A stretch of DNA of 64,000 nucleotides, from NCBI GenBank assembly GCA_918797485.1, contig CAKKNE010000002.1, positions 5,112,501 to 5,176,500 on the forward strand. Direction: 5' to 3'. The position numbers and the translations under genes were made by a program. The stretch's first letter is position 1. Each line of letters starts with the position of its first letter. This DNA is from Pelagomonas calceolata (taxonomy: Eukaryota; Sar; Pelagophyceae; Pelagomonadales; Pelagomonadaceae). A model generated the notes under the pieces. That model was given only the letters and a program-made list of their open reading frames with translations. It did no database searches and was not told where the DNA came from. Positions 349 to 64,000 of the stretch are shown here, in pieces.

Positions 349-372
349 GCTAGTGTGTTACAGGCCGCTAGT
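349..372. promoter_or_regulatory. Recurrent near-palindromic motif, copy 1
   Basis: Reads GCTAGTGTGTTACAGG then CCGCTAGT. It lies 80 bp upstream of the minus gene starting at 269 and 177 bp upstream of the plus-strand signal-peptide frame at 550. The arms GCTAG and CTAGC are inverted; the centre is not. A promoter role is inferred from the position of all copies. Confidence 0.6.
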
Positions 373-547
373 TATTGTTATCCACCAATTTTTCGACGCC
401 CAGCCGCCAGCCGCGCGAGTTTGTGAGGGCGGTAGAATTCGACGTATTAGCACACGAGTCAACGCCGACAATTATTAGTTAGCCCGCGGAGACGCGACGC
501 GCTCGCGAGAAAAACAAGAGCCTGCAGCAGTTTCAGTAATCAGTGGA

Positions 548-2728
548 TTATGAGGCTCGCCTGCGCGATACTCTTGCTCGTCGGAGCCCGCGGGGCCGGC
601 GTCGCGCCCGCCGAGACGCTCGCCAGCGCCGTGCCGGCGGAGAAGAAGAACCCGATCGACGCCGTCGAGGCGACGTACGGCCGCGTAGTAGCAATCGCGT
701 CACTTCGAGATGACCTTCTCTGGCGGCGGAGTAAATAGGCGAATTTCCTAGGCGACCGCTGCGTCTGTTAATATCTACCTTCCCCTCATCGAGTAGCACT
801 TCGACGACTCTCCGATGACCCTTAGAGGCAGCGACGTGCAACGGTTCCCGGTCACGCACTGTACCGTTTAAGCTTCCTAGCGTAGCGTTTGCATTTTCGC
901 GCAGAAGAAGCTGGACGGCCTCCGTCTTCCCGGAGTCCGCGGCGATAATAAGTGCTGTGTACGCACCTTCCCCCATCCGCCGTCCCGCCAAGTTCACGGC
1001 CGCGCCTGCCCTCAGGAGCATCTCCATCATCTGCGTATCTCCTCTGCTCGACGCAGTGCAAAGAGCGGTCTCCGTCCAACTTTTGGACCGTCCAAATACT
1101 AGGCACGGGTAGTCGACGTCGACACCCTGGCTGATCGAGAGCTGCGCCGCTTCAATATCGCCGTCTGCAACCGCGTCGCAAAACGCTTCGGAGGCGGGAA
1201 CGCGGCCCTCCAATAAGGCGACGACCTCGTGATGGCCATTTTCCGACGCGATGTCGGCTGGAGTCCAGCTATCCGGGCCCCACGCGATCGACGCGTCGGC
1301 GCCGTGGCGCAGGAGGGATTTTACAGCCCGAAGCGCCCCAAATTGAGCGGCATAAAATAATGGCGTACAACCTTCGTCCGAGAGGCCATTTATGGCAAGC
1401 CGTCCGTCGTCGAGCAACACACTCAACGCTGCAGTACTGTTTACTTGCGCTGCTGCGTGGAGACAAGAGAAGCCGCCTTTCGCAATCGAATGACGGGGAT
1501 CGACTAACTCTAGTAGAAGCCGCACGATGTCGCTGTGGTTACGCTCGGCTGCTGCGTATAGGGCGTCGCGACCATCAGTCGTCTCGATTGACACGTCCGC
1601 GCCGCGTTCTACTAATGCCACGACCGCCCCGAGCTGACCATTTTGTGCAGCAAAATGTAGTGGAGTTCTGCCTGCATCGTCAAGACCGTCCATAGGAAGC
1701 CTACCGTCCTCCAGCACAACTTCTAAAACTGCAACATTGCCTCTTTCGGCTGCTATGTGGAGCACGGTAAAGCCACCCGGATTATACGTCGCGTCGAATG
1801 GATTGACTTCGGAATCCTCCAACAGGAGCTGCACGATCTCGCCGTGGCCACGTTCGGCTGCTATGTAAAGAAGATGGAGGCCCTGGCTGTCCACGACGTT
1901 CGCATCGGCGCCCCAAGAGAGTACCACCTTGAGGACTTCCGTGTGCCCATGGAACGACGCGATATGTACAGCGGCAAACGTCCCTGTTGTTGTCAGGCAT
2001 GGATAGTCGACATCGACGCCATTGCTGAGGGACTTCTCCACCGCTTTGGCATCGCCGTCCTCGACCGCGGCGCAGAACGCTTCGGAGGGGGTCCATCCCT
2101 CGGCCTCCTTCAGTAAGGCGGCGACCTCGTCGTGGCCGTTTTGCGACGCGACGTCGGCTGGAGTCATTCCATTCCACGCGATCGTCGCGTCGGCACCGTG
2201 GCGCAGCAGTGCCTCAATTATCTTGAGCCGGCCTTCCTGGGCGGCTTGATGTAATGGGGTATGGCCTTCTGTTGTACGGCCGTCAATCGGCAGCCGTCCG
2301 TCTTCGAGCAACGTCTCTAAAGCTGCAGTACCACCCTGGAACGCTGCTACGTGGAGGGGGCCGGAACCGCTTGGCTTTAAAATCGAGTCCCGGGGATCGA
2401 CCTCCGCGAGCAGAAGCCGCACCACATCGCCATGTTTTTCCTGAGCAGCAATGTAAAGAGGAGTCCCGCCCTGATGGTCCACGATGTTCGCATCGGCCCC
2501 GGCCTCTAATAGCAACCGCACGACCTCCGTGTGCCCGTTTTGCGACGCGATAAACAGAGCGGTCTCTTTCCCGATTGATGTGGGGCACCGATAGTCGATG
2601 TCGGCGCCATCGCGAATGGACTTCTTCACCGCTTCGAGATTCCCATCATTAGCCGCTCGGCAAAACGCTTTTGAGGCGGCCGCGTCCGCGGTCGCCGCGC
2701 AGACGAGCGCCGCGACCAGCAATCTCAT
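548..2728 (-). CDS. Secreted or membrane-exported ankyrin-repeat protein
   Basis: The 726-residue frame starts with a signal peptide (MRLLVAALVCAATADAAA). It then has about 15-18 ankyrin repeats with cores such as GHTEVVRLLLEAGADAN. The repeats form three large modules, each opening with a variant of SEAFCAAVEDGD followed by a hydrophobic Asp-Tyr-Pro-Cys turn (residues about 18, 215 and 505). Each module therefore begins with a conserved Cys pair, fitting an oxidising compartment. From about residue 680 the sequence turns into Arg/Ser-rich text in the middle of a repeat, and it runs antisense to a signal-peptide-like frame at 550-684. The true 3' end is therefore doubtful: either an intron donor (GTACGTC, near 684) or a truncation. 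Ankyrin identity is secure; function is unknown. Confidence 0.85.
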   Translation of the reverse strand: MRLLVAALVCAATADAAASKAFCRAANDGNLEAVKKSIRDGADIDYRCPTSIGKETALFIASQNGHTEVVRLLLEAGADANIVDHQGGTPLYIAAQEKHGDVVRLLLAEVDPRDSILKPSGSGPLHVAAFQGGTAALETLLEDGRLPIDGRTTEGHTPLHQAAQEGRLKIIEALLRHGADATIAWNGMTPADVASQNGHDEVAALLKEAEGWTPSEAFCAAVEDGDAKAVEKSLSNGVDVDYPCLTTTGTFAAVHIASFHGHTEVLKVVLSWGADANVVDSQGLHLLYIAAERGHGEIVQLLLEDSEVNPFDATYNPGGFTVLHIAAERGNVAVLEVVLEDGRLPMDGLDDAGRTPLHFAAQNGQLGAVVALVERGADVSIETTDGRDALYAAAERNHSDIVRLLLELVDPRHSIAKGGFSCLHAAAQVNSTAALSVLLDDGRLAINGLSDEGCTPLFYAAQFGALRAVKSLLRHGADASIAWGPDSWTPADIASENGHHEVVALLEGRVPASEAFCDAVADGDIEAAQLSISQGVDVDYPCLVFGRSKSWTETALCTASSRGDTQMMEMLLRAGAAVNLAGRRMGEGAYTALIIAADSGKTEAVQLLLRENANATLGSLNGTVRDREPLHVAASKGHRRVVEVLLDEGKVDINRRSGRLGNSPIYSAAREGHLEVTRLLLRGRTSPRRRRSGSSSPPARRWRASRRARRRPRGLRRARVSRRRAS
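550..684 (+). CDS. Possible signal-peptide first exon, rest not found
   Basis: From the ATG at 550 the plus strand reads MRLACAILLLVGARGAGVAP, a good secretory signal peptide, then an acidic mature stretch to about residue 45. After ACGGCCGC a GTAGTAG follows that could be a donor site. No continuation is visible: the downstream DNA codes for the ankyrin protein on the other strand. Read in the ankyrin frame, this same DNA gives an arginine-rich non-ankyrin tail, which suggests that the plus strand is (or was) the coding one here. It may be the remnant of a gene truncated by a rearrangement at about 680. Confidence 0.25.
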
Positions 2729-2941
2729 GTCTATCGCGCCCCGCGGGCGGCGATGCGCCGCAGAGCGTGTTGGCGCGTCCAGCGCTGCTGAGTGTCAGGC
2801 CCACAGATCGCAGCGCTGCGAAGCTCCTCAAAAACTACCAGCGCAGCGCAGCGATGCGATCGTCAGGATCGTCAGGACGGCCCGACAGGTCGCTAGCGAG
2901 GCGCAAAAGGCGCAAGACGACTTGCTTGTTTGCTAGGCATC

Positions 2942-2965
2942 CCTAGTGTCTTACAGGCCGCTAGC
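2942..2965. promoter_or_regulatory. Recurrent near-palindromic motif, copy 2
   Basis: Reads CCTAGTGTCTTACAGG then CCGCTAGC. It is 213 bp upstream of the ankyrin start on the minus strand and 55 bp beyond the 3' end of the PH/coiled-coil gene, so the ankyrin gene is the only start it could serve. Confidence 0.65.
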
Positions 2966-3020
2966 GCGCGGATTTCCTCACGACCTGTCAAAACCCGGAT
3001 AATTAACCCTGAACTACGTA

Positions 3021-4232
3021 TTACACCCCCGCAGAAGAATCCCCCGCCCGCGATACGTGCTTCCGCCGCGACCGCGGCCCCGTATCCAAGGAACTCCGCC
3101 ACGCGGGCTGGCGGCCCTGGTCCGACCGCGCGCGCGTCCGCGACCGCGTCGTCGACGGCACGTCCTTGGAACCGAAGAAGGGCCGCGGCGTCCGGGCCTT
3201 GCCCCCATACACGATCGCGTCCGTCCTATTTATGGTCGACAGCAACCGGTCGCGGTCGCGGCGCTGCCGCGACTGCGCTCCTCTCAATAGTTCGACCTCG
3301 TCGTGGGCGATATCCAGCTGCTGCTGCAACCGCACGGCGCGCATCTCGTGGGCGTCACTGGCCGCCTCGGCTTTCCGCCGCCGCGTCGCCTCGATCTTCA
3401 CGCGCTCCTCGAGGGCCTCGGCCCGGCCTTCGAGCCGCGCGCACTGCTTCTGCAACCGCCTCAGCTCGTCAAGCTGGCCCTTCTGCGACAACCTACTATG
3501 CTCGGAGGCCTCGTAGCGCTCGCGCCACTTTTGCGTCTCCGTCTTCTGCTTCGCGACGGCCTCGCTGGCCTTCAGCCGCTCCTGGGACCGCGCTTCGACG
3601 TCGCCGGCGCGCTGGAGCGCCAGGGCCGCCAGGTCCTCGCGGACGGCGGCGACCTGCGTCCGCGCGGCGGCCTCGGCCGCGACGGCCCGGCGCGTCCGAT
3701 CCTCCGCTGTTTCAGCTCGTGCCAGCTCCACGGCGTCCGTCGTATCGACCGCGAGGGTGTCCTCGACCACTTCCGGGTCCTGCTGGCGCGCAACGGCGGT
3801 CGACGGCGCGGGCGGCGGCGACGCCGACCGCTTCGACTCATCCTCGGGCTCGTCCTCGGGCGTCTCCTCGGCCTCGGACACGGTCCGGCGTTGTGGAGGA
3901 GGCGGCGGCGGCGCCTCCGGCTCCAACTCCTCCAAAGCCTCCTCGCCCGCCGCCCGCCGCTTGATGGCTTTCACCCACTCCTCCGCCGCCGCGGCGCTCT
4001 CCGCAATATAAGACTCGGCGCCGCCGCCCACCGTGTCCACGTCGAAGCCACAGGGGCCGGGGTCGCCGGCGTCCGCCGCGCGCCACGCCCGCGCGTCCAC
4101 AATGACATTCCAAGACTTCAGGTCCTTCGCGGCGACGATGCCGTCCGCACTTAACCCGAAGCTCACCGGCGTCCACCTCCACAGCCCCTCTCCATCGAGC
4201 TCGCGCCGCTTGACGGTGCCGGGGAGCTCCAT
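3021..4232 (-). CDS. PH-domain and coiled-coil protein
   Basis: I take the ATG at 4230-4232 (MELPGTVKRRELDGEGLWRW). Upstream in-frame codons to 4400 add a low-quality Arg-rich leader. Residues 1 to about 105 look like a pleckstrin-homology domain: basic beta strands, then SAAAAEEWVKAIKRR as the C-terminal amphipathic helix with the usual Trp. An acidic, proline-rich linker (six consecutive Pro) follows, then a long coiled coil (residues about 160-340) rich in Arg, Glu and Ala with heptads such as LDELRRLQKQCARLEGRAEA. The tail is basic and disordered. It is probably a phosphoinositide-binding membrane adaptor; no catalytic motif is seen. Confidence 0.75.
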   Translation of the reverse strand: MELPGTVKRRELDGEGLWRWTPVSFGLSADGIVAAKDLKSWNVIVDARAWRAADAGDPGPCGFDVDTVGGGAESYIAESAAAAEEWVKAIKRRAAGEEALEELEPEAPPPPPPQRRTVSEAEETPEDEPEDESKRSASPPPAPSTAVARQQDPEVVEDTLAVDTTDAVELARAETAEDRTRRAVAAEAAARTQVAAVREDLAALALQRAGDVEARSQERLKASEAVAKQKTETQKWRERYEASEHSRLSQKGQLDELRRLQKQCARLEGRAEALEERVKIEATRRRKAEAASDAHEMRAVRLQQQLDIAHDEVELLRGAQSRQRRDRDRLLSTINRTDAIVYGGKARTPRPFFGSKDVPSTTRSRTRARSDQGRQPAWRSSLDTGPRSRRKHVSRAGDSSAGV

Positions 4233-4585
4233 GATGTAGCGTGGGGGCAGCGCGCCGACGGCGGGGGCTGCGCGGTGCACGAACCGCGTCTGTTTCCGGC
4301 CGCGCGCCGACGGCGTCGGACAAACCGCGTTTGTTTCGTGTTGTTGGCACTGGCTCAACCGATTCGTGCGGGGTCCGCATACGAAAGCGGACGCGTCCAA
4401 GACGCACGCACTGGACGCCTGGCACGTGTGAGAGAGGACGCGTGACAGGGCGCGACTGTTCCTAAAAATCCTGGAGCGTTTCCTTGCGCTAGATAACTTT
4501 TGCGGCGGCGCTTTGGTTGCTGTTCAGAGCACAGCCATCAGCGCTCGCGTCTGTGCAGTTGCCGCTGTGCATTGAGAAGGCATTG
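4233..4585. other. Divergent intergenic region without the recurrent motif
   Basis: This 353-bp gap separates the divergent PH/coiled-coil and KsgA genes. No copy of the GCTAG motif, no TATA box and no repeat was found. Weak minus-strand coding upstream of 4232 and plus-strand coding upstream of 4586 mean the first codons of either gene could lie inside it. Confidence 0.5.
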
Positions 4586-6587: not shown

Positions 6588-6611
6588 AAAGGTTGTCTAT
6601 GCACACTTACA

Positions 6612-9646: not shown

Positions 9647-9670
9647 GCTAGTGTCTTACAGGCCGCTAGC
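9647..9670. promoter_or_regulatory. Recurrent near-palindromic motif, copy 3
   Basis: Full form GCTAGTGTCTTACAGG then CCGCTAGC, in the 302-bp divergent region between the SLC12 gene (68 bp away) and the hydrolase gene (210 bp away). Nothing else was recognised in this region apart from a T-rich run at about 9690. Confidence 0.75.
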
Positions 9671-11266: not shown

Positions 11267-11282
11267 GGATGAATGAGGCCGC

Positions 11283-12286: not shown

Positions 12287-12310
12287 GCTAGTGTCTTACA
12301 GAACGCTAGC
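12287..12310. promoter_or_regulatory. Recurrent near-palindromic motif, copy 4
   Basis: GCTAGTGTCTTACAGA then ACGCTAGC, in the 429-bp divergent region between the C3HC gene (188 bp) and the GNAT gene (217 bp). No other structure was seen in that region. Confidence 0.7.
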
Positions 12311-13845: not shown

Positions 13846-14301
13846 GGTCGAGCGGCGGCACGGAGGCCGGTCTGGCGGGTGATGGGCAGCCCGCTCCCTT
13901 GTGCTGGAGCAGTCGTCCCTTTGGCTGCTACGCGTCGACGGGACCGGCGGCTCGCGGAGGTGCTGTGAGAGACCCTGCGAGTCTTGGGCTGTCGCTTGTC
14001 GTCGCTGGGCGTCGACGGCGGCCGGCGCTGTACAGGTCTGAGACTAGCTGAGACCCACTAGCAGCGGGCCGAGAATTGAACAGCTGAGCCCGGCATTCGC
14101 CCTGTTGGGCCTAAAACAGCGTGTGTGGGTGCCTTGGCGACTTACTTTTTTAAGGGCTGCCCGGGCACCGCGCACCGAAGGGCTACCGCTGGGATCCAGG
14201 CAGTTTGAGTGCCCAACCAATTAAAGCACCGCTTAGATTGCGGGCGGAGGACCAGCCTCGGGTGCCCGACCAATTGAAACAACACCAGAAGCACCGACGC
14301 G
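13846..14301. other. 456-bp divergent intergenic region with a direct repeat and motif variant
   Basis: Besides the motif variant at 14043-14062, two related 22-25 bp segments occur just upstream of the plus gene: GTGCCCAACCAATTAAAGCA at 14209 and GTGCCCGACCAATTGAAACA at 14262, 53 bp apart. Both contain a CCAAT-like core and could be duplicated activator sites of the large PH gene. A tRNA-like ATTGAAC box near 14080 does not fold as a tRNA. Confidence 0.45.
14043..14062. promoter_or_regulatory. Recurrent motif, diverged copy 5
   Basis: ACTAGCTGAGACCCACTAGC keeps both CTAG arms and the ACTAGC end of the motif but has a changed core. It sits 197 bp from the EF-hand start and 239 bp from the PH-protein start, as expected for a copy serving a divergent pair. 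Confidence 0.4.
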
Positions 14302-20345: not shown

Positions 20346-20368
20346 GCTAGCGGCAGTAAGACACTAGC
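20346..20368. promoter_or_regulatory. Recurrent near-palindromic motif, copy 6 (reverse orientation)
   Basis: GCTAGCGGCAGTAAGACACT then AGC, in the 419-bp divergent region between the surface protein (234 bp) and cyclophilin (162 bp). The rest of the region holds no repeat or further site that I can see. Confidence 0.7.
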
Positions 20369-21184: not shown

Positions 21185-21208
21185 GCTAGTGTGTTACAGA
21201 CCGCTAGC
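21185..21208. promoter_or_regulatory. Recurrent near-palindromic motif, copy 7
   Basis: GCTAGTGTGTTACAGA then CCGCTAGC, between two co-directional genes: 82 bp after the cyclophilin stop and 73 bp before the MYND start. Here only the MYND gene can be served. Confidence 0.7.
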
Positions 21209-24142: not shown

Positions 24143-24164
24143 GCTAGCGGCCTGAGACACTAGC
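24143..24164. promoter_or_regulatory. Recurrent near-palindromic motif, copy 8 (reverse orientation)
   Basis: GCTAGCGGCCTGAGACACTA then GC. It is 181 bp upstream of the sulfotransferase start on the minus strand and 66 bp past the end of the transporter gene. Confidence 0.65.
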
Positions 24165-25532: not shown

Positions 25533-25556
25533 GCTAGCGGTTGATAGACACACTAG
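25533..25556. promoter_or_regulatory. Recurrent near-palindromic motif, copy 9 (reverse orientation)
   Basis: GCTAGCGGTTGATAGACACA then CTAG, in a 280-bp divergent region: 168 bp from the transporter start and 88 bp from the start at 25645. Confidence 0.7.
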
Positions 25557-25644
25557 AAACAGGTCGAGGTCGGACGCACAGCCGTGCCGTTCACACCAGA
25601 AGGGCAGCCCCAGCCCCAAACGACCAAAAACCGCTCCAGGAACG

Positions 25645-28026: not shown

Positions 28027-28049
28027 GCTAGCGTAATCGACACACTAGG
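28027..28049. promoter_or_regulatory. Recurrent near-palindromic motif, copy 10 (reverse orientation)
   Basis: GCTAGCGTAATCGACACACT then AGG, between the divergent UPF0598 gene (97 bp) and acyltransferase gene (168 bp). Confidence 0.65.
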
Positions 28050-32659: not shown

Positions 32660-35600
32660 TCACGCCAGCACGCACCCTTCCGGCGGCGCCTCCACAGCTG
32701 GCACGGGTGGCGCGGCCTCAGACCCGCTGCTCAGCGAGCGCCGGCGCCGCCGCGGCGACCGGCGGTCGCGCGGCGAGCGCCGCGCGGGAGAGCTCCGGTC
32801 CGATGCCGCCGGCGACTGGTAGAGCGCGTCGCGCTCGCGCCGCAGTTCGGGGGACGTCTTGAAGATGTCCGCGAGATGGGGCCGCTCATTATCCCAGGAC
32901 CGCGGCCGCGGGCGGTCGATGCGCTCCGGCGACTGGGCGCGGTCCGCGGCGCAGACGCGGTCCACCCTCAGCAGTAACGCGGCGAGCACGTCGCGTGCGG
33001 CGCGTCTTATCGAAGCTAAATCCGCGGCGTCGAGCGGCGGCCCGTTCCGCGCCGCGACGACGTCGGCGCGCGCCGCCGTCTCGGCCGTCGCCGCCACGAC
33101 GACCAGCGCCGCGACGCAGGCCTCGTTGCGTGTTATTAAAGGGACCGTGTAGGACGGGCGTCTCCCCTCCGTGCTCGCCAGCTTGACGTTCCTCGCCTTG
33201 GCCACGACCGTCAGAACGTCGTGCCACGGGACACTCCGTCGTCGCAATACTTCGGTGAGGGCCGGAGCCCACCTTGATAAGGGCCTCCTCAAAAAGTGCG
33301 ACGCGTGGCGTTTTAAAGTAGCTCGATCTAATGCGCCGGCGCCGGCCCGGGCGAGCTTCGACGCCGCGTTCGCCGCCGCACCCCTCGCGTCGGCCCGCGC
33401 GGCGACCTCGCGACCTGCGAAACGGACGGTGATCGTATGCCGGCGTCACCGCGCCATCGCCGCGACGCAAAAGAAACTCGGACGCCGAAGACGCACAGGC
33501 GGCCCAGAAGTCGTTCGAGACATGGGCCCCGCACGCGTACGCCGAGACGACGTCCCGCGACCCGTGCACGTGCACGAGCGCCGCGCCCCGGTTCGCCAGC
33601 CGCACGCCGAAGGGCGCGCGCGGCGCCGGTGGCCGCTCGACGACCGGAGCCGCATCATCTCCCGAGCTCTCCGACTCGTCGTCCGCCGTGTCGGTTTGGT
33701 CGTCTTCGTCCGACCAAGGCATCCTAGCTGCCGCCCCGACGGCCCAGGCCGCCCCCGCCTCGTCGGCATCTGAATGCATCCCGAAGACCCGCGACAGCGC
33801 CATCGAGAGCTTTGGTGAAGAGTCGCGCTGGCGCGGCGCGGCGCGCCACGTCGTCGCGAAGGCGCCGTCTTCGAGCTTGTGGGCCGTCACTTGGCTTGAA
33901 GAGCGTCTCGCTAGTACATCTGCGACGAGTAGAACAGCAGCATCTCGTCTTTGCAACAAACCCCCTCTTCGACAGGCCGCCTGAGCTAACCGCGCCGCGA
34001 AGGCCGTGGCTTGCTGATCGACTTTCGCTCGAGCTAACAAAGCTTTCGCCGCGGCCCCGGCGCCGCCCCGCGTCGAACCATCCACGGACGCCAAAACGTC
34101 GGCCACCAGAGCCCACGACGCTCTGGAAGCGGTATCTTCCTCTTCCACCACAGCACCTACGGATCTAGCGCGCCTTAAAGGCTTCACCGCACTTCCAGAT
34201 CGTTGGAGTCGCACTTTCAGGAGTAACGAACCACCGGTCTTGTCGCACCGCAGCAGATCGGACTGCGCCGTCGTCCGCTCCAGCTCAAAACCAGCTGCAC
34301 GCCACTCAAGCACCACATTAGCTCTAAACGCTAACGCGCAGGCACACGCCTCGGCGACCTCGGTCGCCTCCGGCCCGCAGTCGTGCTCGTCTTCCTTCAT
34401 GCGTCTCTCACCGTCACTGCTGTCCGACTCTTCGTCGTAGGCGTGGACGTGGTCCGCCCGGCGCTTCCGAGCCGGTCGTCTTACTGCCACTCGTAGGATG
34501 GTCGCCGTCGTCGCCGCCTCCTCGTCGTCAACGAATACGTCATCAAAGCGCTTCAATACAGGTAACTGGTCCCGTCCCGTGCCGTCCTCTGAGGAAGAGT
34601 CGTCCTCGCCCAATTGATATGAAGAAGTCTTGGGTCTCTCACGAGGTAACGGCGCCGCAATACCACTCCCGGGCTCGCCCCACCAGGGCGACGCCTTCGC
34701 TAAGTAGGACTCGGCGTCCGCGTCGGACTTCCTTTCTCGTTGATTCGACCGGCGCCGTCTCCGGTTTCGACGTCGTTGCCGCGGCGCGTCCTCTTCATTA
34801 ACACGGGCGCTCGTCGCCTTGGCTACGCGTCGGTCTCTATCTCGTTGCCGATCGCGAGCTCTACGTGCCGCGACTCCTAACGACGTCGCCAACCGATCGT
34901 GCGCGGCATCCCCTACTCCAAACGTATATAATGATCTTTTGGCACCATGTATGGAAGCAATAGCTATAGCTGGGGCGTCCGCCGGCGTTCTACGACCGCA
35001 CGCTACCACCCGCCAAGGACCATCAGTAACTCTAGGTCGCAATATGTCCGCCCGACCCCGATTGCCCGAGAACGCGCCTCCCGCATCTCTCGCGAACGAC
35101 GCCTGGGCCTTCACTGCCAGCGTCTGCAGCGCCCAGGGCGGACTTATGGAACTGTCGCGACTGGCCCGGGCGTCGCCGCAGCCCGCCCGATGTGCTGCTT
35201 TTAAAGCTGACTGTAATCTACGAGCACCCAATCTAGAATGAGCCGCCTGGGCGAGCCAGCGGGAAGCTGCCGCTCGCGTTCGAGCCGCTAAAGCGCCTCT
35301 AGCAGCCACGCGTTCGAGCCAGTTCCCCAGGTTATGTTCCGAGGAATCCCCACCAAATAACGCCCACGACGCCCGCGCGACTCCATCTTCGAGTCTCAAA
35401 TCACAGAGAGCCGCCCGGAAACCGGGCTCCTTGTCCGGCAGGGCAGCTAAACAAAGCCGCACGCCTTCGCCCGACCTGTCTGGGAATAAGGCGTCCCACC
35501 TGTCCGAAGAGCCCTTTAGCTCCACCGGACGACTGGCAAACTGGTCCCGCGAGAAATAGCCGGACGCCGTTCTTCTAAGACCAGCCGCCGCCGCACCGAG

Positions 35601-38600
35601 ACTTCGACCTTTCTCCAGAGCCACATCGGACGTCCTAAAAACCGAAGAAGGCGCTCCCAGTGCATTCAAATCATCCTCGTCCAGATTCAGCGACGCGCAT
35701 CGCTCGACGCCCTGATCGGCGAAGAAGTCGCTCTGCAGGGCTCTTCTAGCGACCACAGCGACATCCTCATTAAAAGCGGCAGCACAAGCCGCCGCGCAGG
35801 CGTCCGAGAACGGTCTACACCCAAAAATTCGCAATTCGCACCGTTTTTGATCTGGGGTCCATAAACGAGCATAACACGAGCTACCATCAGAAGCGTCGGC
35901 CGGCGTCGCCGGTACGATCTTCTCTCTCCTTGGTAGGACGTAGACGCGAGGCCTATTCACGACGGGAGCTGCGGCCTTACCCATCAGTGACGGCGTCTCC
36001 TCTAAATATTTAGCTAGTCGTTCGATGACGTCTTGCGGTGACCGGAACCAGCTCCTTTGTGAGTATAGGGGCACCTGTATGGTCGACAGCAACTCGCAAC
36101 TAAATGGAGACACATCTACATCAGCGTGGCCGCCGCCACCCGCTGGTACTAACAACTCGTGGGCATGCCTCGTCGACGCCAGCGCCGACAACAGTCGTAA
36201 TTGGGAAGCCACTCGAGACGCTCGTGACAAGGCGCATCGCAGCGTCCGAGCTACCGCTTCATCTTCCCCATCCTCCTCCACGATGCCTCGCTTCTCTCTT
36301 GCTAATGCTATTGTCGTCGATAGGCCAGCGGCAACAGCGTCGCCGGAGGGCGGCGCCTTGTCCTTCGGTGACGACGCGCTCATCTGTCTACCTCTGTCTC
36401 TGCGAGAAGGTGGTGGCGCCCTACGACCATATCTGCCACCAGTAGGTACGGGACCGCCATATCTCCGTTTGGGCAACGCAACGACGTCAGCTTGTCTAGC
36501 ATGATAGTGGATCTGGCAAGTTGAGACTCTAACAGAAGCTAGGTAAGTAGATGGTGCATTTGACAAGTCCTTCGCGTCGACGACGACGTAAGCGCCGGCG
36601 ACCGCTCGAAAGGCGACCCTTGTGAGCCGTCGTTCAACAGCTAAGGCCGCGTTCTCGGAAGGGTCCCCATCAGCTAAGGCTTCGTCGGGCTTCGCCCAAC
36701 TACTTCTTTCGGTCAATGCCCTCCTGAGAAAGCCCTCCAAACCAGCGGGCATGGCTCCATCACCGACGCCCGCATCGTCGCCCGCGAAGGCCACGACGTC
36801 GATGCGACAGGATAGTCTCCTAGCATCCAATCCAGGTCTAAATCTAGTAGCTTTGGCCTCCTCGGCGCATTTCAATGCCACAGCGTTTAACGCTGCCGCT
36901 AAGCCGCCGCCGCCGTCGGGGATGGGGGTTGGATTAGCTAATCGAGCGTGCAGAGCCGCGGCGGCCAAACAGGCGTCTACCGCCCTAGCTAGGTCCTCGC
37001 ACTTGGCTATCGCGGCCGAAGATAACGTCTCGTCTCCGACCAAGCCCACATCAACCTCAAGAGGCCGTCCCGACTCCTGCCGCGCCCGCGCGAAGAATCC
37101 TGATTGGACCTCAGGTAACCGAGCCGGGGAATTGCTTCGTCGTTCATCTTCATCTTCCTTTGACGCAATAGGTGCAGAATACGCGAAAACGTCTTCCCGC
37201 AGCGTCTGGAAGCCGCAGGCCTCCCAGGCCTCGCTGACGGCCTCGTCCGTGTCCTCCCAGTCCTCTTCTTGCAATGCTCGGGCGGCTAGAGCGGCTACCG
37301 CCGCATCTGCACTTACAGCTTTGGTCCACCGTACGGAATCGAGCGCGGCAGACACTTCTGAGGACGAAGCTTTCGATTGACCTAGTAATTGTAGGGCACC
37401 TCGTGCATATGCGGCAGCATGGGCGCGCTTCACGGCACCGGCGACCCTCTTAGTGGTTGAGCCGACCTCGTCTTCATTGCGCACCCCATAACCCCGCGCC
37501 ACGTCCCTCGCGGACACTTCGTGCAGGTGCACGCCTTGGGAAGAACCATCACCTTCACAGACCTCCGCAACTAAAGCACAGGCCTCTCCTAGAGATTTGT
37601 TGGTTGTTAAACCAGTGACCCAAGTCGAGTCGTCGACCCTTGTGGCCACTTGATCTAAAGAAGCGGATATCGCAGCATGAACACCTTTCGCCGCTACGGA
37701 TCGTTCCGCGTCGTCGTCCCCGAACGTCGCCAGGTCCAACGCTAAGGTACGGGTAGCATACGTAGCCAATGCTACGGCAGAGGCGCCATCAACTGCCGAA
37801 GCCCCTCTACCCCCAGCACCTAACGCTCTCAGAGCTCGTAAGGCGTTGTGGGCCCGCCCATCTTTCCGTCGCAGCTGACTACGTATTTGCGTAACCACGG
37901 CCATATCTACCGACAAGCCTCGTCCCGGCTCGACCCACAACTCACTCACCAATTCATTCCCGTCGAACTCCACGACACTCTGCACGAGCGGGACTGACGA
38001 AGAGTCGTCTTCGATGCGCGCTTCGTCCTCCTGGGGCCTCAGTTCATTACTATCGGCGACGAGCAGACACGCGACCACATTCCCCTTCGTGCGGCGTTCG
38101 TCAGCTAAGGAGAAGCCCAGAGCTTCCCTCGATGCCCTAAAGGCAGCTAAAGCCGCGTTTCCGTCGACAACGGTCGCGTCGTACTTGTCCCGATAACCCG
38201 CTAAACTTGTTCGTAGCCATCTCTGAGCTACGGCGTGGGGCGTGCCGTACACATCGTCGTCGCCTTCTTTGGCCACTTGACGTATTAAAAACGGGGCCGC
38301 CTGCGCTAGCGAGTGGGGCTCGCCGCCCGGCGCCGCCGCGGCCGACAGGCGAGCTCGTAAGTCCCGCGCCGCGTTCTCATTGCGGGAACCAACCGTAGCC
38401 AGAGCGACTTCCAGCACGCGCGACGCGCGCCATCGCGCGCGCGCCACAGTCAATTCTTCCTCTGAAGATTTACGGGCGTAGGCACCGGACACGCCCTGCA
38501 CGGGCCGGCCCCATCGCGACAGGGCGTCTGCGACTCGCCGCGCCGCGCCGGCCTCCGGGCCGGACGTGGCGACGTGGAAGCGCTCGACGTCGGCCAGAGC

Positions 38601-40415
38601 AGCTAAATCTCTAGCGGGTAATGCCGCAACCAATCGCTCTAGCGCATCGGCCGTCGGCTTCTTCCGTCGCGACCGCCGTCCTCGTTGAGATGAGTCCTCC
38701 TGGATGTCCCCGAGCTCATCATCTCTCAGATGATCCAACACAGATTCGACGAGCGTCGAGTGCTTCTTCTCCTCCTCTTGCCGTTCCGTGGTCGACGACG
38801 AGGTCTGGGATAATGAGGACAGGGCGCCGTCCCTCCTCAAAAGCCATGCTGCTAGATCCCTAAGTCTCCGAGCGCGCGCCTGGGACGCCTCGTCGCGCGC
38901 CTGTTGCGGCGAGGGGCTTCGAGAGGTTGAGGGAGTTCGCGACGCGTCGTCGGACCGCTCGATCGGTCTTGACCGTCTTTGTATACTTCTTGCTTCTTGA
39001 GGCGGTCCTAATGCAGCAACACCGAGATTCTCGAGGGGTGGTAGCGTTCTTAAAGCTTCCACGACGGACAGGGGCCCGATGACCTCGATGCGCGCGGACA
39101 CGGCCCCGGATTTTGTGGACAACGCCGCAGCTGCTAAGTCGGAGGGCGTCGCCGTCCGACCAGACGTTCTTCGTCGCGCCTCATTCACCAACTCGTGCTG
39201 CGGCGGCGGTCTCAGTTCCACGACATATCGTAGAGTCGTCGCGTCGTCGACCAAACGAGGCAGCTCCCACGTAATCGAGAGCGGCTCGCGCGGTCGTCGC
39301 TTCTGGGACGCGGTCTGGATCTTGAACGACGTGAGATCTAGAGGCCCCGACGCGCGTAATCGAGCCACATCCGATAAAGACGCGCGCGGCAGCGGATAGG
39401 CAGCTAATTGCTCGACGTTCTGATCAGTCGATGACGTATGCGGCCGCAGCGAGAGGGGACTTCGTCTCCACACTAGAGATGAACCGACGTCCTCGTCCCT
39501 TCTCCGGACGACGCGCTTACTGGCGACACTACCTTTGACCAGTTTGTTGCGAGAAGGGTGGTAGGACATGAACCCGCCACCAGTGCGTTCACACGCGACG
39601 GTCGCGCCGGCCCAGTCCGCCACCAAACCCCACGTCGCGTCGGACTCGTCATCAAAGGCCGCACCCGCATAATCCAAGACGTGTAACGCGACACCTTCCC
39701 TTCTGGCATGTGCTCCCGCGCCGCCCTCGGCCCGCCCACCCAGCAAGCCGCAATCCCTAGGTGCGGCCACACCGTCGCCGTCCGTCGCTACTACGATCGT
39801 TCGGGCGCCTCCTGACTCACAAAACCGTAGAGCGAACAACCCGGCTCGCGCGCAGCGCTCGACCGAGGGTGCACCACCACATTCCTCCGTCTTGTGCGTC
39901 GCGAGGCGCTTCTCCGACGCATGTATAGCTGCAGCGATTCTCTCGGAAGCTTCTTGGAGTGATTGATTTGTCTCTACCATAACTCGCGCACAAGGTCTCC
40001 ACACGACGTCATCTGCTGCCACAACTAATAACTGGGCGTCCACCACGATCTTCTCCAGGGGCGAGCAGGCTCGTTGGGACGTGATGGCTTCGAGCAGACA
40101 GGAGATCGCTTTTGGTGCTAACGCGAGCGGCACCCTCCCATTTCTAGCGGTCCGCGCATGCTGGCTTGCGTCTAACACAATGACCAGAGAATGGCGTCGC
40201 GGCGCGAATCTTATAGTTGTGGAAGGCGACACGAGGGCCCGGTGCTCGCCGCCTCGTCGGCCAAGGACCTGGCGCGGCGTCGGCAGCCGCGCGTCGTCCG
40301 ACGGCGCGACGGTGCGCCAGAGGTGCTGGAGGTGCCAGGCGGCAGCCGCGCGCGGGCCCCAGGCCCGGTCCGGCGCCTCGACGTGGACTTCTACCGCGGG
40401 TGGCGGCGGGGCCAT
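32660..40415 (-). CDS. SZT2: SZT2-like KICSTOR component, two exons
   Basis: The first exon (33497-40415) and second exon (32660-33414) join through an 82-bp GT-AG intron (33415-33496, donor GTGCGT, acceptor TTTCGCAG) to give 2557 residues in frame. SZT2 anchors the KICSTOR complex, which places GATOR1 on lysosomes to restrain TORC1 when amino acids are low. The N-terminus matches SZT2 in order: STTIRFAPRRHSLVIVLDAS (vWA-like strand), LALAPKAISCLLEAI, IVVDAQLLVVAADDV, ASERIAAAIHASEKRLA. Later regions are long and divergent, with acidic and Arg-rich inserts (RQRRRNRRRRRS) between conserved strands. The protein is shorter than human SZT2 (about 3400). The call rests on the N-terminal pattern, so a related giant protein cannot be excluded. 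Confidence 0.6.
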
Positions 40416-40570: not shown

Positions 40571-40593
40571 GCTAGCGTTTCTAACACACTAGC
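40571..40593. promoter_or_regulatory. Recurrent near-palindromic motif, copy 11 (reverse orientation)
   Basis: GCTAGCGTTTCTAACACACT then AGC, between the SZT2-like gene (155 bp) and MYND paralogue 2 (62 bp). Both MYND paralogues thus have a full copy about 60-75 bp before the ATG, in opposite orientations. Confidence 0.7.
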
Positions 40594-45544: not shown

Positions 45545-45559
45545 GCGTGACACACTAGA
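45545..45559. promoter_or_regulatory. Partial recurrent motif, copy 12
   Basis: GCGTGACACACTAGA keeps the ACACACTAG arm but not the other. It is 260 bp upstream of the kinase start and just past the end of the bL35 gene. The 329-bp gap 45285-45613 holds nothing else that I can identify. Confidence 0.4.
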
Positions 45560-48799: not shown

Positions 48800-48970
48800 G
48801 ATTGTTGTGTTGCCGTCAGTGGCGCTGACTGCGTTGTTTACTTCGCTGCGAGACCCAACGGTGGTCGATATGTTGCAGCGGTCCTTCAGAGCAGCAGTAC
48901 TGGTGCTGCTGGTGCAATGGGACGGACTCTCCAAGCGAGACCACCGCGTTTGCCCTCGACACGCAGATTA

Positions 48971-48992
48971 TTAGCGTGATCAACACACTAGC
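48971..48992. promoter_or_regulatory. Recurrent near-palindromic motif, copy 13 (reverse orientation)
   Basis: TTAGCGTGATCAACACACTA then GC, 171 bp upstream of the PdxT start and 97 bp past the end of the DUSP gene. Only PdxT starts nearby. Confidence 0.6.
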
Positions 48993-50577: not shown

Positions 50578-51228
50578 CTTTCGTCGCGCTCTGCAGCTCT
50601 GTATTGTGGTCTCTTGGAGTTACGGCAGTACAGCGGCGTCGGCGGCGCTTTGGACACTCTGAGCGCTGTGGAGCTGTGTTGGGCCGATGAGATATGTCTA
50701 CTCTGCGTTCAGCTTCACTGATTAGGTCGTTATAGCACCGTTCTACGCTGCGCCGAGCTTGCTTTGCTATTCCTAGTGCCTTACATGCCGCTAGCAAAAT
50801 TTTGGTTTGGGAGGACTCCCTCGGAGCCAGGGAGCGTTCCTTTTCCCCCTTGCGAGCGATTCTTTGAGCTTTTGTGAACCTCATTTTATAGTCGCCGCAT
50901 TTTGGAGACGGGCTTAATTGCAGCCTAGCTCGCTCATCGTGCATTGCCGTGTCGACAGAAGTTGCGTACGCTATTAGAAGTGATTGAGCCAGCGGTGGAG
51001 AAAAAATCGAGGCCGCGCGAGTCGCGGCGGGGCTAATAAGCGGCCTCTCTCGCTGACTGCTTGAGCACCGCCAAGCGAGCAGCGCGCGGGCCCGCCGTGC
51101 CGCTGGACCCGACGCCAGCCGACGAGAGGCCGCCGCGGCAATACGCGCTCCTCACAACCGTCACATTCACCCTTCTCGAACGCAGGTCGAACGCCGCACG
51201 GAGACGCCGCGCGGCTGAGACGACAAAT
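50578..51228. other. 651-bp divergent intergenic region DUSP/uS17
   Basis: It contains one full motif copy (50773-50796). The last 170 bp are open in the uS17 frame (from 51061), which may be translated leader or an upstream exon. The rest shows no repeat or gene. Confidence 0.45.
50773..50796. promoter_or_regulatory. Recurrent near-palindromic motif, copy 14
   Basis: CCTAGTGCCTTACATG then CCGCTAGC, 195 bp upstream of the DUSP gene on the minus strand and 432 bp before the uS17 ATG. Confidence 0.7.
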
Positions 51229-60543: not shown

Positions 60544-60975
60544 GTCGTCGCCCGTTTTTCGTTCCCCTGTCATTAGTAATTCTCTCTTATGAAGTCTTTT
60601 ACCCATGCCCTAGGCCTCGCCGATGCCCGCGAGGCACGCGAGCACGTGCGCGATCGACTTGACGCCGAAGGCCGAGCCCAGTCGCGGCGATGGTGCATTT
60701 TTATAAGGAAGGAACTTTACGAGGGGGGAGAGGTAGGGGGAGGGGGGGGGATGTCTGACGCCCGGCGGACAGCACACCCCGTCGGCACTATGCTATCTTG
60801 CCCATTGAACAGGCTCCTGCCTTGCGCGGTCGATCGCAGGCAGCGCCGCAATACCGGGTGGAGCTCCTTGTGCACGCTGGGGAAGGCGACGCTCACGGTA
60901 CGTCACCACGTGCGCTCGGCGCCCGACGGGAGGGAAGTGGGGAGGGGGGCGGGAAAACGGAGGATGACGAGCTGA
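60544..60975. other. 432-bp convergent region with G-rich tracts
   Basis: Between the calreticulin and BRCT-like 3' ends lie G-runs at 60722-60750 (runs of about 6, 5 and 8 G) and 60937-60953. On the plus strand they could fold as G-quadruplexes and might pause polymerase between the two genes. The crossing frame 60589-60975 is not protein-like. Confidence 0.5.
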
Positions 60976-63590
60976 TCAGGCCTGCTTCTTCGAGGACCGC
61001 GTGCTCCGCGACGTCGACGGAGGCTTGCGCTTGCTGCTCTTCTTCGACACGAGGACGTCGAGCTGCGACGCCTGGAGCACCTTGATGTATCGGCGCCGCG
61101 CCGCGATGAGCTTCGCGCTCAGCTGGTGCTTCGCGGGCAGCGTGCCCTGGATGACTAGCGTCGTCCTGGACGTCATGGCGTTACTCGTGGAGGCGACGCC
61201 GCGGGTCATCAGGTACTCGCAGACCGCGGCCTTGTCGTCGAAGCCTTCGACGTGGCCGGTAATGACCACCTGTGTGGAATCAACCAGTGAGTTAGGTCAC
61301 TGGGACATCGTCGCGTCGATGGCGTAGACTCTTAAGCCATCGCGCAGACCCAGTTACGGAAATATGTCGCGTCGACGGGTGGGGCGCCCGAGATTTGATT
61401 TCCACACAGATGACCACGTCCTTGGCGCCCTTCAAATCGTCGACGCGGCCGCGCTTCACGGCCGGCAGGGTGCCCACTACCGAGGCAATCACCGTCTCGA
61501 GCGCGTTGTCCGGCAGGAGTCGGCACAGGTCCTCCTCCGCGATCAATTTGGTCGAGGTCGACGACCTTTCAGCAAATCTAATGGAGTCCGACGTCGCGCC
61601 CGAAGGAGCGATGACGTAGTCGTCCTTTTTGCACGCCTTGCTCCTAGAAACCTTCGATACGTCCAGCACGTCGGTCAGTATGAGCGCCCAGTTGTCGTGC
61701 GTGAATTCCTTCGGGCAGCCTGTATGGAAATCAACAAGTGAGTAGACGTCGCGCCATAAAATTGTGGTCCGCGCCGGGGCTTACTGACGCGCACGCGTTT
61801 TCCTTCGAAGTCTTCCAACTTCAAATCCGAAACCGGAGACTCTGTCATCTCAACGTCAGTGGCCGTGGGAACAGCAGCCTCCGCGGCGGCCGCGATGAAC
61901 TTCTCCTTCTCCTTCTCGAACGCGGCCTTGTGCCTGTGTGGAAATCAGATGTCGCGTCGATGGCTTGAGATGCGCGTGAAATTTGATCTCCACACTTGTA
62001 CCAACTCTTCGTAGCGCTTTTCAGCAATGAATCGGTCGTGGGCGCGGACAAATCCGACAAATTCATGCGGAATCCCGAGCGATTCGATAGGTACCCAGCC
62101 CTCGACGGGTTCGACGAGGTAGCACTCACCCTCGCGAAGGTTCCCGATACAGAGGTGACGCTCCATGACCGTCGTCTCTGCTGGGAGGTATTTTGGTCCA
62201 GATGTCGTGTTGACTAAAACGCCGGCCGCGTCGACGACTTTGCGTTCAACGTCAGGATAAATGGAACGTAGCGCAGGCTGAGGTCCGAACTCGAATCGCT
62301 GAAGCCCGAGCGATTCGAGAGGCACCCAGCCCAAGACTGGTTTCCTGATGAAGCACTCGCCCTCGCGAAGGTTCTTTGTCGACACGTGGCCCTCCATGAC
62401 CTTCGTTCCCGCTCCGAGGTATTTCCTGGGACCAGATGTCGTGTTGACTATAACGCCGGCCGCGTCGACGACTTTGTGCTCAAAGCCAGGATAAGAGGAA
62501 CGTAGTTTCGGCTTCGGCCGAGCCTTCGCGGTCTTAGGTGCGTACGAGGAGCGTTCGACGGGAGTCAGAGCCGCCCACTCAGCCTCCCGCGCGGCCTGGG
62601 CCTCGGGCGAGTCGACGATGGCGTCGGCGTGCTCGGCGCACTCGCGTAACTCATCATCCGAGAGGACGGAGGCTTCGACTGGAAAGAGTGGTGGCTGCTT
62701 GACCGGCGGCGCATCAGGCCGTTCCGACGCGTACCGCACGTACAACGCCCGGAGATTGTAACGCAAAGCGTCGCGGTGTGACCGGTCCCCGCCGAACTTC
62801 AGCAGGTAGCCGTCGGCGAGCCCGCCCCAGTCGCGATCCTCGTCGCCCTTCGACGCCACATGGGCGACCTGTGTGCAAATTTATCAATCTGTGAGTCGAC
62901 GTCGCGTCGTCGTCGCGTGATTTGTACACTGCAGTCGACGACGAAGGCGATCTGTTCTTCCGTGTAGCTCATCTGTTTCCCACGAGCGCCAACCTTGTAC
63001 TCGCCGAGGCGCTCCGCTTCAAGTCTTAGGTCGCGCGGCAGGCTCTTGTCGACGGGGACTGTGCTGAGGACGAGGTAGAGGGCGAGCTGGCCGTTTAAGC
63101 CGGTCGTGACGTTCTTGCCGCACTCATCAACGTTGAATTCCTGCAGCTTATTACCAAAGGCCGCGTGCGCGTTCTTGCACCAGTTTTCCTCGGCGCCGGT
63201 TTCCCCGTCGTGCTTGTCGCCGTCGGCCGTGAACCGCTCGTCTACGGACGGCCAGACGACTGCGATGGAGAGCACCTTGTCGTCGCCGTCGGCGAGGTCG
63301 CGGATGCCGATGTTGTTTAACTCCTTCGTGTGAACACCGATCATTTTAGTAGCGTTGTGCCCGGTCTTCGAGCCGCCGGCGTACATACCAACGGCGTTGA
63401 AACCGCTCTTGGCCGTTTGATTGGCGATGTGCCCGAGCATCGCCTTGGCGTTCTCCTCGTTGTAGGGCAGCTTGCTGTGAATAATGCCATATGTGCGGTC
63501 GTGCGACGTGTGCGACTTTACGGCTTTGGGCGCAAGGCCGGCGGCCGCGGCGACGGCCATCGCCAGCAGGATACCCCTTCTCGTAGCCAT
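60976..63590 (-). CDS. Signal-peptide, SH3-like repeat and BRCT-like protein, five exons
   Basis: Exons 62940-63590, 61994-62868, 61785-61933, 61418-61719 and 60976-61269 join in frame to 756 residues. Exon 1 starts MATRRGILLAMAVAAAAGLA (signal-like) and encodes an unrecognised domain of about 200 residues. Exon 2 has two tandem 75-residue units (KVVDAAGVIVNTTSGP, LREGECFIRKPVLGW, VPLESLG; then the same at LREGECYLVEPVEGWVPIES) that resemble bacterial-type SH3 domains. Exons 3-4 include KLEDFEGKRVRVS and CPKEFTHDNWALILTDVLDV. Exon 5 holds VVITGHVEGFDDKAAVCEYL and TTLVIQGTLP, a BRCT-like strand-helix pattern, then a Lys/Arg/Ser-rich tail. Every intron is an introner. A secretory leader on a BRCT-like protein is odd, and exon 1 could belong to a separate older gene. 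Confidence 0.7.
61270..61417 (-). mobile_element. Introner element acting as intron 4 of the BRCT-like gene
   Basis: 148 bases. Exact 8-bp target duplication ATGACCAC (61262-61269 and 61410-61417), TIRs CTGTGTGGAATC and GATTTCCACACAG. On the gene strand the upstream duplicate starts GTGGTCAT, which supplies the GT donor; the element supplies CAG. Splicing recreates KDVVITGH with no added residue. The youngest copy by its perfect duplication. Confidence 0.95.
61720..61784 (-). mobile_element. Introner-derived intron 3 of the BRCT-like gene
   Basis: 65 bases with a consensus GTAAGC donor and an introner end (CTTGTTGATTTCCATACAG). The 5' TIR is gone. Phase 1 splicing gives RVRVSCPKEF. It looks like an older copy that has acquired a stronger donor. 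Confidence 0.8.
61934..61993 (-). mobile_element. Introner element acting as intron 2 of the BRCT-like gene
   Basis: 60 bases, GTGGAGATCAAATTTC to CTGATTTCCACACAG, with the internal GTCGCGTCGATGGC box. Only the GT inside the TIR keeps the frame (VQVHKAAF). Flanks GTACAAGT/GCACAAGG agree at 6 of 8 bases, as a worn target duplication would. Confidence 0.88.
62869..62939 (-). mobile_element. Introner element acting as intron 1 of the BRCT-like gene
   Basis: 71 bases. Ends CAGTGTACAAATCA and TGATAAATTTGCACACAG. Flanks GTCGACTG/GTCGCCCA share the first four bases; the GT of the upstream flank as donor gives IAFVVAHVASK in frame. The most diverged TIR of the set. Confidence 0.8.
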
Positions 63591-64000
63591 GGTTGGTGTT
63601 GCCTCGTGGCGCTCGTGGCGTGTCGTGAGCTGTGAGCGGCGTCGAGACGGTTGAGCGCCGGCGTCTCAATGAACGCGGCGCAAAATGAAACGCGGCGCAG
63701 TACCGGCGCGTGCCGGGGCCGTACTAGAGGCACGTGAGCGGCCGCGGTGTCCCCGTAGCGCGAGTTATGCGCAGGTCGTTAATTAATCTGGAAGAGTTTG
63801 TTGGGCCCACAGATTCGTCGCGCGTGAGAAACAGAGCTCCCGTCACTGTAACGCTTCGTCCGTGTGACCGCGAGAAGACCCCGTACCGCGAGATACCGGT
63901 CAGTCTGATGGCAACGAGCTTGCGTTTGCTAAGTGCTAAGACACACTAGGAAGCACCAAGGCTGCATGTGTTTCAGCAGCTGGCGCTGCTGTACGCCCTC
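63591..64000. other. 410-bp edge region upstream of the BRCT-like gene
   Basis: It holds one motif copy at 63928-63950. The plus frame 63734-63949 has no protein-like features. Nothing else was identified up to the window edge. Confidence 0.45.
63928..63950. promoter_or_regulatory. Recurrent near-palindromic motif, copy 16 (reverse orientation)
   Basis: GCTAAGTGCTAAGACACACT then AGG, 337 bp upstream of the minus-strand gene; it may instead serve a plus-strand gene beyond the window edge. Confidence 0.55.

What the first reader, a model, noticed from the sequence alone, without database searches (positions are those of the whole stretch)
349..63950. A near-palindromic 22-24 bp motif marks gene starts across the window
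About 14 clear and two weak copies (349, 2942, 9647, 12287, 14043, 20346, 21185, 24143, 25533, 28027, 40571, 45545, 48971, 50773, 52065, 63928) share GCTAGTGTSTTACA and an inverted CCGCTAGC end in either orientation. None is in a coding region. Nearly all lie 60-260 bp from a start codon, and seven sit in divergent promoters. No convergent gap has a full copy. The arms are inverted while the core is directional, so a dimeric factor or a bidirectional initiation element would fit. I know of no described pelagophyte core element of this form.
Basis: partly seen in the sequence, partly recalled or inferred. Interest (0 to 1): 0.85.

Follow-up and report, generated by a model that had tools for sequence, protein, structure and literature searches.

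The report
Paired DNA motif at gene starts
A small ocean alga carries thousands of copies of one two-armed, near-palindromic DNA motif that sits, one at a time, in roughly half of its gene-start regions and hardly anywhere else, so it probably marks where transcription of neighbouring genes begins, often in both directions.

Summary
The motif is real and far above chance. The window lies in a 32.4 Mb, 8-contig genome that matches Pelagomonas calceolata. CTAGTGT-N5..11-CGCTAG occurs 3,500 times genome-wide against 8 for the reversed pattern. In a 304 kb sample with my own gene models, all 49 sites with at most one mismatch are noncoding; the 42 in bounded gaps are all in gaps with a gene start. 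Divergent gaps carry it in 28 of 54 cases, convergent gaps in 0 of 16; no start-containing gap holds more than one (50 hold one, 68 none). It sits at a median 193 bp from start codons on both sides, without orientation preference (11 against 11). Upstream-ATG depletion, a proxy for 5' UTR, begins at the motif and follows it from promoter to promoter (2 of 2,000 shuffles as good). Best reading: a bipartite site for an unidentified, probably dimeric factor at the centre of promoters that are often shared by two divergent genes. Transposon end and RNA hairpin are disfavoured. My limited paper searches found no described pelagophyte element of this form. RNA, chromatin and comparative data are missing.

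The parts
349..372 (+). motif copy, 1 mismatch, spacer 9, divergent gap
2942..2965 (+). motif copy, 1 mismatch, spacer 9, single-start gap
9647..9670 (+). motif copy, exact arms, spacer 9, divergent gap
12287..12310 (+). motif copy, exact arms, spacer 9, divergent gap
20346..20368 (-). motif copy, exact arms, spacer 8, divergent gap
21185..21208 (+). motif copy, exact arms, spacer 9, tandem gap
24143..24164 (-). motif copy, exact arms, spacer 7, single-start gap
25533..25557 (-). motif copy, 1 mismatch, spacer 10, divergent gap
28027..28049 (-). motif copy, 1 mismatch, spacer 8, single-start gap
40571..40593 (-). motif copy, exact arms, spacer 8, divergent gap
48970..48992 (-). motif copy, 2 mismatches, spacer 8, single-start gap
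50772..50795 (+). motif copy, 2 mismatches, spacer 9, divergent gap
14043..14062 (-). weak copy (matrix score 6.9; shuffled 95% level 6.6) in a divergent gap
45545..45558 (-). weak copy, arm A only (matrix score 4.6)
63928..63950 (-). weak copy at the window end, not within 2 mismatches, not scored

Best explanation
The motif is a bipartite DNA-level promoter element: GCTT-GCTAGTGT-STTACA..-MCGCTAGC-TC, arms of the form GCTAGYGK in inverted orientation, spacer 5-11 bp between GCTAGTGT and CGCTAGC, mostly 7-10. A still unknown sequence-specific protein, most likely a dimer with a flexible linker, binds one copy per promoter, keeps the region free of nucleosomes and lets transcription complexes assemble on both sides. 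One site thus serves both genes of a divergent pair, or the one downstream gene in a tandem gap. Shown by computation: sequence, abundance, confinement to start-containing gaps, one copy per gap, orientation independence, distance to start codons, and a drop in upstream ATGs that begins at the motif. Inferred: start sites within some tens of bases of the motif edges, the nucleosome-free region, the dimer, and a function in transcription.
For: 3,500 copies of CTAGTGT-N5..11-CGCTAG against 8 reversed. 49 of 49 sites with at most one mismatch noncoding; 42 of 42 placed ones in start-containing gaps (74% of the gap bases, P=4e-6), and outside the window 32 of 32 (P=1.5e-4). 28 of 54 divergent, 0 of 16 convergent gaps. 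50 gaps with exactly one site, where random placement gives 9.1 gaps with two or more and never none in 20,000 trials. Median distance 193 bp to start codons, alike from both arms (193, 194); orientation 11 same, 11 opposite. ATG on the gene strand falls from 1.26 to 0.45 per 100 positions at the motif, CAT mirrors this; a boundary at the motif beats the best fixed distance from the start codon by 6.3 lnL units; change point -45 to +10 bp of the gene-facing edge. Precedents: NRF1, a homodimer on inverted half sites whose flexible linker may explain binding at altered spacers (PMC10810270, passages); the palindromic CGCG element that drives divergent transcription (PMC6192621, abstract and passages).
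Against: 68 of 118 start-containing gaps, and 26 of 54 divergent ones, lack it. At two mismatches, 2 of 52 placed sites lie in gaps without a predicted start, both very long gaps (1,641 and 1,518 bp) where a gene may have been missed. A/T skew of the gene strand rises only from about 120 bp outward, which would place start sites further away than the ATG signal does. No fixed-distance initiator-like word was found. Gene starts are my predictions, not annotated or mapped; the two sides of a divergent gap are not independent in the ATG test. No binding protein is known.
Confidence: 0.68

Rival explanations
1. An ordinary orientation-free activator site somewhat upstream of the start sites: an unknown factor activates a large regulon but does not itself place the start sites.
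For: Absent from 68 of 118 start-containing gaps; A/T skew rises only about 120 bp out. In Phytophthora infestans, motifs 75-300 nt upstream without orientation bias were taken for enhancers or proximal elements (PMC3599244, passage).
Against: Strictly one copy per gap and an ATG boundary that tracks the motif fit an initiation-centre better than an additive activator.
Confidence: 0.18
2. A boundary or uncoupling site: a bound roadblock that keeps two divergent promoters apart or limits antisense transcription, as discussed for yeast Reb1 and Rap1.
For: Lies between divergent starts, one copy per gap. Yeast precedents in PMC7618759 and PMC6602560 (passages).
Against: Also present in gaps with a single start (22 of 58 gaps of 60 bp or more), where no divergent coding promoter needs separating; absent from 16 of 16 convergent gaps.
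Confidence: 0.07
3. A replication-licensing (ORC-type) site that lies in open promoters.
For: One copy per promoter region, thousands per genome, symmetric. Nothing more direct.
Against: The ATG boundary at the motif speaks for a link to transcription; about one site per 6 kb (49 in 304 kb) would be dense for origins (my judgement).
Confidence: 0.03
4. Termini or footprints of a transposon or MITE family that is tolerated only in promoters.
For: Inverted arms, thousands of copies, and this genome has Introner-Element-like introns (PMC9481584, passage).
Against: Information falls to background 4 bp outside arm A and 2 bp outside arm B. Flanking direct repeats are no longer than for shuffled pairings (1.10 against 1.07 +/- 0.20). 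Among 110 flanks of 150 bp only 6 pairs match at E 0.01, at differing offsets from the motif. No unbounded insertion into coding sequence.
Confidence: 0.02
5. An RNA hairpin in the 5' UTR, stem GCUAGUG/CGCUAGC with a variable loop.
For: On one strand the arms could pair (one G-U), and the loop length varies.
Against: No orientation preference (11 against 11). The outer bases of the two arms vary almost independently: 2064, 408, 825, 203, odds ratio 1.24, P=0.02, where pairing predicts strong compensation. 5' UTRs seem to begin at the motif, not before it.
Confidence: 0.02

Closest known systems
Vertebrate CGCG element TCTCGCGAGA (PMC6192621; abstract and passages)
   Same: Palindromic element of TATA-less promoters that drives divergent transcription, also in imperfect palindromes; can lie between the two start sites of a gene pair.
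   Different: Sequence unrelated and only 10 bp without spacer; it may occur in several copies per promoter; 93% of human copies are in annotated unidirectional promoters. Function there was tested, here not.
NRF1 site GCGCATGCGC (PMC10810270; passages)
   Same: Inverted half sites in promoters, bound by a homodimer whose flexible linker may allow other spacers.
   Different: Sequence unrelated; best spacer 2 bp, with weaker binding at other spacers tested; here 5-11 bp with a conserved directional linker. No factor known here.
Yeast general regulatory factors Reb1, Abf1, Rap1 (PMC7618759, PMC6602560; passages)
   Same: Single strong sites in promoter nucleosome-depleted regions, some between divergent transcription units.
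   Different: Sequences unrelated as far as recalled; Rap1 and Reb1 can also restrict divergent transcription. Nucleosomes and binding untested here.
Oomycete core promoter elements INR, FPR, DPEP (PMC3599244; passages)
   Same: Stramenopile promoter elements placed by distance to the start codon.
   Different: Directional (forward to reverse 1.8-5.9), mostly within 50-100 nt of the start codon, in 7-18% of promoters; here no orientation, median 193 bp, 50 of 118 start-containing gaps.
Drosophila Motif 1 (M1BP; recalled, no call)
   Same: Recalled consensus shares CACACTA with the reverse of arm A.
   Different: Recalled as one short directional motif of fly housekeeping promoters; a superficial likeness, not tested.

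Membership tests
Oomycete/stramenopile core elements (INR, FPR, DPEP) | Forward orientation bias relative to the gene | tested here: not met
   11 same, 11 opposite in single-start gaps; published ratios 1.8-5.9
Oomycete/stramenopile core elements (INR, FPR, DPEP) | Location mostly within 50-100 nt of the start codon | tested here: not met
   Median 193 bp, quartiles 156-234, n=78
TATA box | TATAWA near the inferred start | tested here: inconclusive
   0 of 78 arms within 100 bp outward of the motif, but only 1.04 expected by chance
DNA transposon termini or MITE | Target-site duplication | tested here: not met
   Mean flanking direct repeat 1.10 against 1.07 +/- 0.20 for shuffled pairings
DNA transposon termini or MITE | Shared sequence next to the inverted repeats | tested here: not met
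   Background within 2-4 bp of the arms; 6 matching flank pairs among 110 flanks, at differing offsets
General regulatory factor / NRF1-like dimer site | Inverted half sites | tested here: met
   Arms GCTAGTGT and CGCTAGC, read inward GCTAGYGK
General regulatory factor / NRF1-like dimer site | Concentration in promoters | tested here: met
   42 of 42 placed sites with at most 1 mismatch in start-containing gaps
General regulatory factor / NRF1-like dimer site | Nucleosome-depleted region and a bound protein | not testable with these tools
   No chromatin or binding data
CGCG-type bidirectional initiation element | Start sites on both sides of the element | tested here: inconclusive
   Only by proxy: ATG depletion begins at the motif in both directions; A/T skew points further out
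CGCG-type or NRF1 element | Consensus TCTCGCGAGA or GCGCATGCGC | tested here: not met
   By inspection of the site list and the column counts
RNA hairpin element | Compensatory changes in the arms | tested here: not met
   Odds ratio 1.24 for the outer bases only; other pairs were not tested

The most novel reading that the evidence does not exclude
Pelagophytes may have a lineage-specific initiation system in which one bipartite DNA-bound dimer with a stretchable spacer, and not TATA or a directional initiator, places two opposed transcription complexes, so that roughly half of the gene starts of a very abundant oceanic alga hang on one type of shared bidirectional initiator.
Probability: 0.3. 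Interest if true: 0.8.

Novelty: new variant of a known kind. Interest (0 to 1): 0.62.

Why it matters
Promoter architecture is little studied outside a few groups of eukaryotes. [quoted passage not shown] It gives a direct bait for finding an unknown promoter factor. It also makes testable whether gene pairs in compact genomes are driven from one shared initiation centre.

Tried and rejected
RNA families and tRNAs in the window: none. A fixed-distance initiator word in the 78 motif-to-start arms: only weak words. A comparable palindrome in motif-less promoters: none, two other words noted. Pfam matches of first-exon pieces beside divergent gaps with and without the motif: 32 of 50 and 36 of 50, P=0.52, no difference. 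Transposon, hairpin and chance: rejected as given under the rivals.

Rows dropped before counts: 75 hits were merged to 61 non-overlapping ones; one coding hit with 2 mismatches (window 25012) was dropped as chance, leaving 60; 8 sites at stretch ends had no bounded gap and are left out of gap counts. Of the 100+ genes beside divergent gaps, pieces under 300 bp were left out (50 of 56 and 50 of 52 kept).

Mended on review: one search computed P=2.7e-7 for a motif-free stretch on contig 1 with a two-strand rate, but the listing shows only forward sites there; that number is withdrawn and a forward-only estimate is given under things noticed. Of the 6 matching flank pairs, three seem to begin at start codons of related genes, two are a repeat at differing offsets, one is an 18-base match; this reading is inferred from coordinates.
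Full report
WHAT WAS CHECKED. The window is C2:5112501-5176500 of a genome of 32,445,274 bases in 8 contigs. Size and contig number match Pelagomonas calceolata (32.4 Mb, six nuclear contigs, contigs 7 and 8 organellar; PMC9481584, passages); the species name is my inference from that. All 16 places of the finding were read: twelve are clear, four weak or half sites.

FAR ABOVE CHANCE. Genome-wide, GCTAGTGTSTTACA occurs 680+667 times, its reversed control 0; GCTAGTGT-N0..25-CGCTAGC 1050+1039 against 0+4; CTAGTGT-N5..11-CGCTAG 1759+1741 against 5+3. Spacers of 5-11 account for 2,064 of the 2,089 exact pairs with spacers 0-25. For placement I used 304 kb: the window plus 24 stretches of 10 kb, 20 from contig 1 and one each from contigs 3-6, so the sample leans on contig 1. 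With at most one mismatch there are 49 sites and none for four control arm pairs; at exactly two mismatches the controls give 10-23 hits, 1-7 of them noncoding. By length, 49 in 304 kb extrapolates to about 5,200 per genome (my arithmetic).

ANATOMY. From the 60 sites with at most two mismatches (59 with full flanks) the consensus is GCTT-GCTAGTGT-STTACA-N..-MCGCTAGC-TC; information reaches background 4 bp outside arm A and 2 bp outside arm B. Spacers among the 49: 9 bp in 21, 8 in 12, 7 in 7, 10 in 6, 11 in 2, 5 in 1. Read inward both arms are GCTAGYGK, so the arms are inverted while the linker is directional. In noncoding DNA CTAGTGTST is found 45 times in motifs and 8 times alone; CGCTAGC 56 times in motifs and 15 times alone.

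WHERE IT SITS. Genes were called with my own Viterbi model trained on long ORFs; 26% of the sample is noncoding. Of the 49 sites with at most one mismatch none is coding; 42 lie in gaps with a predicted start codon, 0 in gaps without, 7 at stretch ends; start-containing gaps make up 74% of gap bases, P=4e-6. Outside the window, a hold-out because the arms came from the window, it is 32 and 0, P=1.5e-4. With two mismatches allowed, 50 of 52 placed sites are in start-containing gaps; the two others lie in long gaps of 1,641 and 1,518 bp. By gap type: divergent 28 of 54, tandem 9 of 28, start plus predicted splice edge 13 of 36, convergent 0 of 16, other gaps without start 2 of 70. A weight matrix gives the same: above the 99% level of shuffled gaps are 28 of 54 divergent, 22 of 58 single-start and 2 of 58 no-start gaps of at least 60 bp, and 0 of 200 coding segments; the best score of any gap without a listed site is 10.0, while the training sites score 24.8 or more. 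The training sites were part of the gaps scored, so this is a consistency check.

GEOMETRY. Distance to start codons: median 193 bp, quartiles 156-234, n=78, the same from both arms (193, 194). Orientation relative to the gene in single-start gaps: 11 same, 11 opposite. In divergent gaps the motif keeps further from the starts than random placement in the same gaps (mean smaller distance 156 against 103 bp, 0 of 2,000 trials as large) (all). Each of the 50 occupied start-containing gaps has exactly one site; random placement gives 9.1 gaps with two or more, and none in 0 of 20,000 trials. Close pairs do exist elsewhere: two copies 37 bp apart at C1:575887. The DNA within about 100 bp of the motif is AT-richer (mostly 0.56-0.62 GC) than further out (about 0.62-0.69).

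WHERE TRANSCRIPTION MAY START. No RNA data are in reach, so I used depletion of ATG in 5' UTRs, which is seen in promoters with and without the motif. In motif-bearing promoters ATG on the gene strand occurs 201 times in 15,950 positions beyond the motif (1.26 per 100) and 70 times in 15,531 between motif and start codon (0.45); CAT shows the mirror image (0.55 and 1.23), as expected if the neighbour is transcribed the other way. The change point is best placed at -45 to +10 bp of the gene-facing motif edge. A boundary at the motif fits better than the best fixed distance from the start codon (lnL -1257.3 against -1263.6), and motif distances shuffled among promoters do as well in 2 of 2,000 trials (P=0.001). 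So 5' UTRs seem to begin near the motif. Cautions: start codons are predicted, the two sides of a divergent gap are not independent, and A/T skew of the gene strand rises only about 120 bp out, which points further away. TATAWA is in 0 of 78 arms within 100 bp of the motif, but only 1.04 would be expected by chance.

WHAT IT IS PROBABLY NOT. Transposon end: no shared flank at a constant offset, no target-site duplication. RNA hairpin: no orientation preference, and the outer bases of the arms vary nearly independently (2064, 408, 825, 203; odds ratio 1.24, P=0.02). A mark of all genes: 68 of 118 start-containing gaps lack it. A mark of conserved genes: first-exon pieces beside motif-bearing and motif-less divergent gaps have Pfam matches equally often (32 of 50, 36 of 50, P=0.52).

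MECHANISM. Most likely a dimeric DNA-binding protein at the centre of the promoter, serving both neighbours where there are two. NRF1 is a precedent for inverted half sites read by a dimer with a flexible linker (PMC10810270, passages), the vertebrate CGCG element for a palindrome that drives divergent transcription from TATA-less promoters (PMC6192621, abstract and passages), yeast general regulatory factors for single sites in nucleosome-depleted promoters, some of which also restrict divergent transcription (PMC7618759, PMC6602560, passages). None matches in sequence, so this may work like them but is not filed as a member. Oomycete core elements are directional and nearer the start codon; the same paper reports orientation-free upstream motifs that it takes for enhancers or proximal elements (PMC3599244, passages), which is the nearest published rival reading.

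NOVELTY. Searches, seen as listings: Pelagomonas calceolata with genome, motif, promoter, 0 papers; Aureococcus with promoter motif, 9, mostly about giant viruses, of which PMC5917014 describes the virus's own motif (passages); at least two of pelagophyte, transcription factor binding and palindromic, 1,657 papers of which the 12 listed hold no 'pelagophyte'; core promoter with stramenopile and motif discovery, 6; the string CTAGTGTGT with motif, 39 papers, 10 listed, none on pelagophytes by title; Pelagophyceae with cis-regulatory, 2, on other topics by title. The genome paper's main text has no word beginning with 'motif'; a 2026 expression paper has neither 'motif' nor 'promoter'. A paper on Phytophthora infestans factor specificities has no GCTAG, CACACTA or TAGTGT in its main text. 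Only open-licence papers are held, so an earlier description elsewhere cannot be excluded.

Noticed in passing
L018 and L269 (C1:2800001-2810000, C1:2700001-2710000): Contig 1 has no listed forward exact site between 2,591,481 and 2,963,178 (about 12 expected, my arithmetic, place chosen after the fact). Two stretches inside have GC 0.513 and 0.482, like the low-GC centromeric regions of PMC9481584. L269 has ORFs of 784 and 554 codons that my GC-rich gene model missed, so promoters there may be of another type.
   Followed up: partly
window and L009-L032, noncoding gaps: A second word, GGCTGCCC: 47 occurrences in start-containing gaps (16 in gaps with, 31 in gaps without the main motif), 0 in gaps without a start, 23 in coding sequence, 1 unplaced. 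It was picked from an enrichment list after the fact and may be another promoter word.
   Followed up: partly
e.g. window 51596, 51945, 61318; L009 1651; L014 5588: A longer recurring word around ACGCCATCGACGCGACG, in 24 placements in gaps without a start, 23 in start-containing gaps, 28 coding, 3 unplaced for ACGCCATC; perhaps a dispersed repeat.
   Followed up: partly
first-exon pieces beside divergent gaps: Counted by eye after the fact: EF-hand, ion-channel or BBS1 proteins are 9 of 50 beside motif-less divergent gaps and 0 of 50 beside motif-bearing ones. Not a planned test.
   Followed up: no
window 33498-40415: A predicted 2,306-residue reading frame on the - strand beside a motif copy, without a Pfam match at E 1e-5.
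   Followed up: no
motif variants, e.g. L014 7011, L012 9841, window 52055: A minority of sites read CTAGTRTGTC with other linkers in place of CTAGTGTCTTACA, perhaps a second subclass or a second factor.
   Followed up: no
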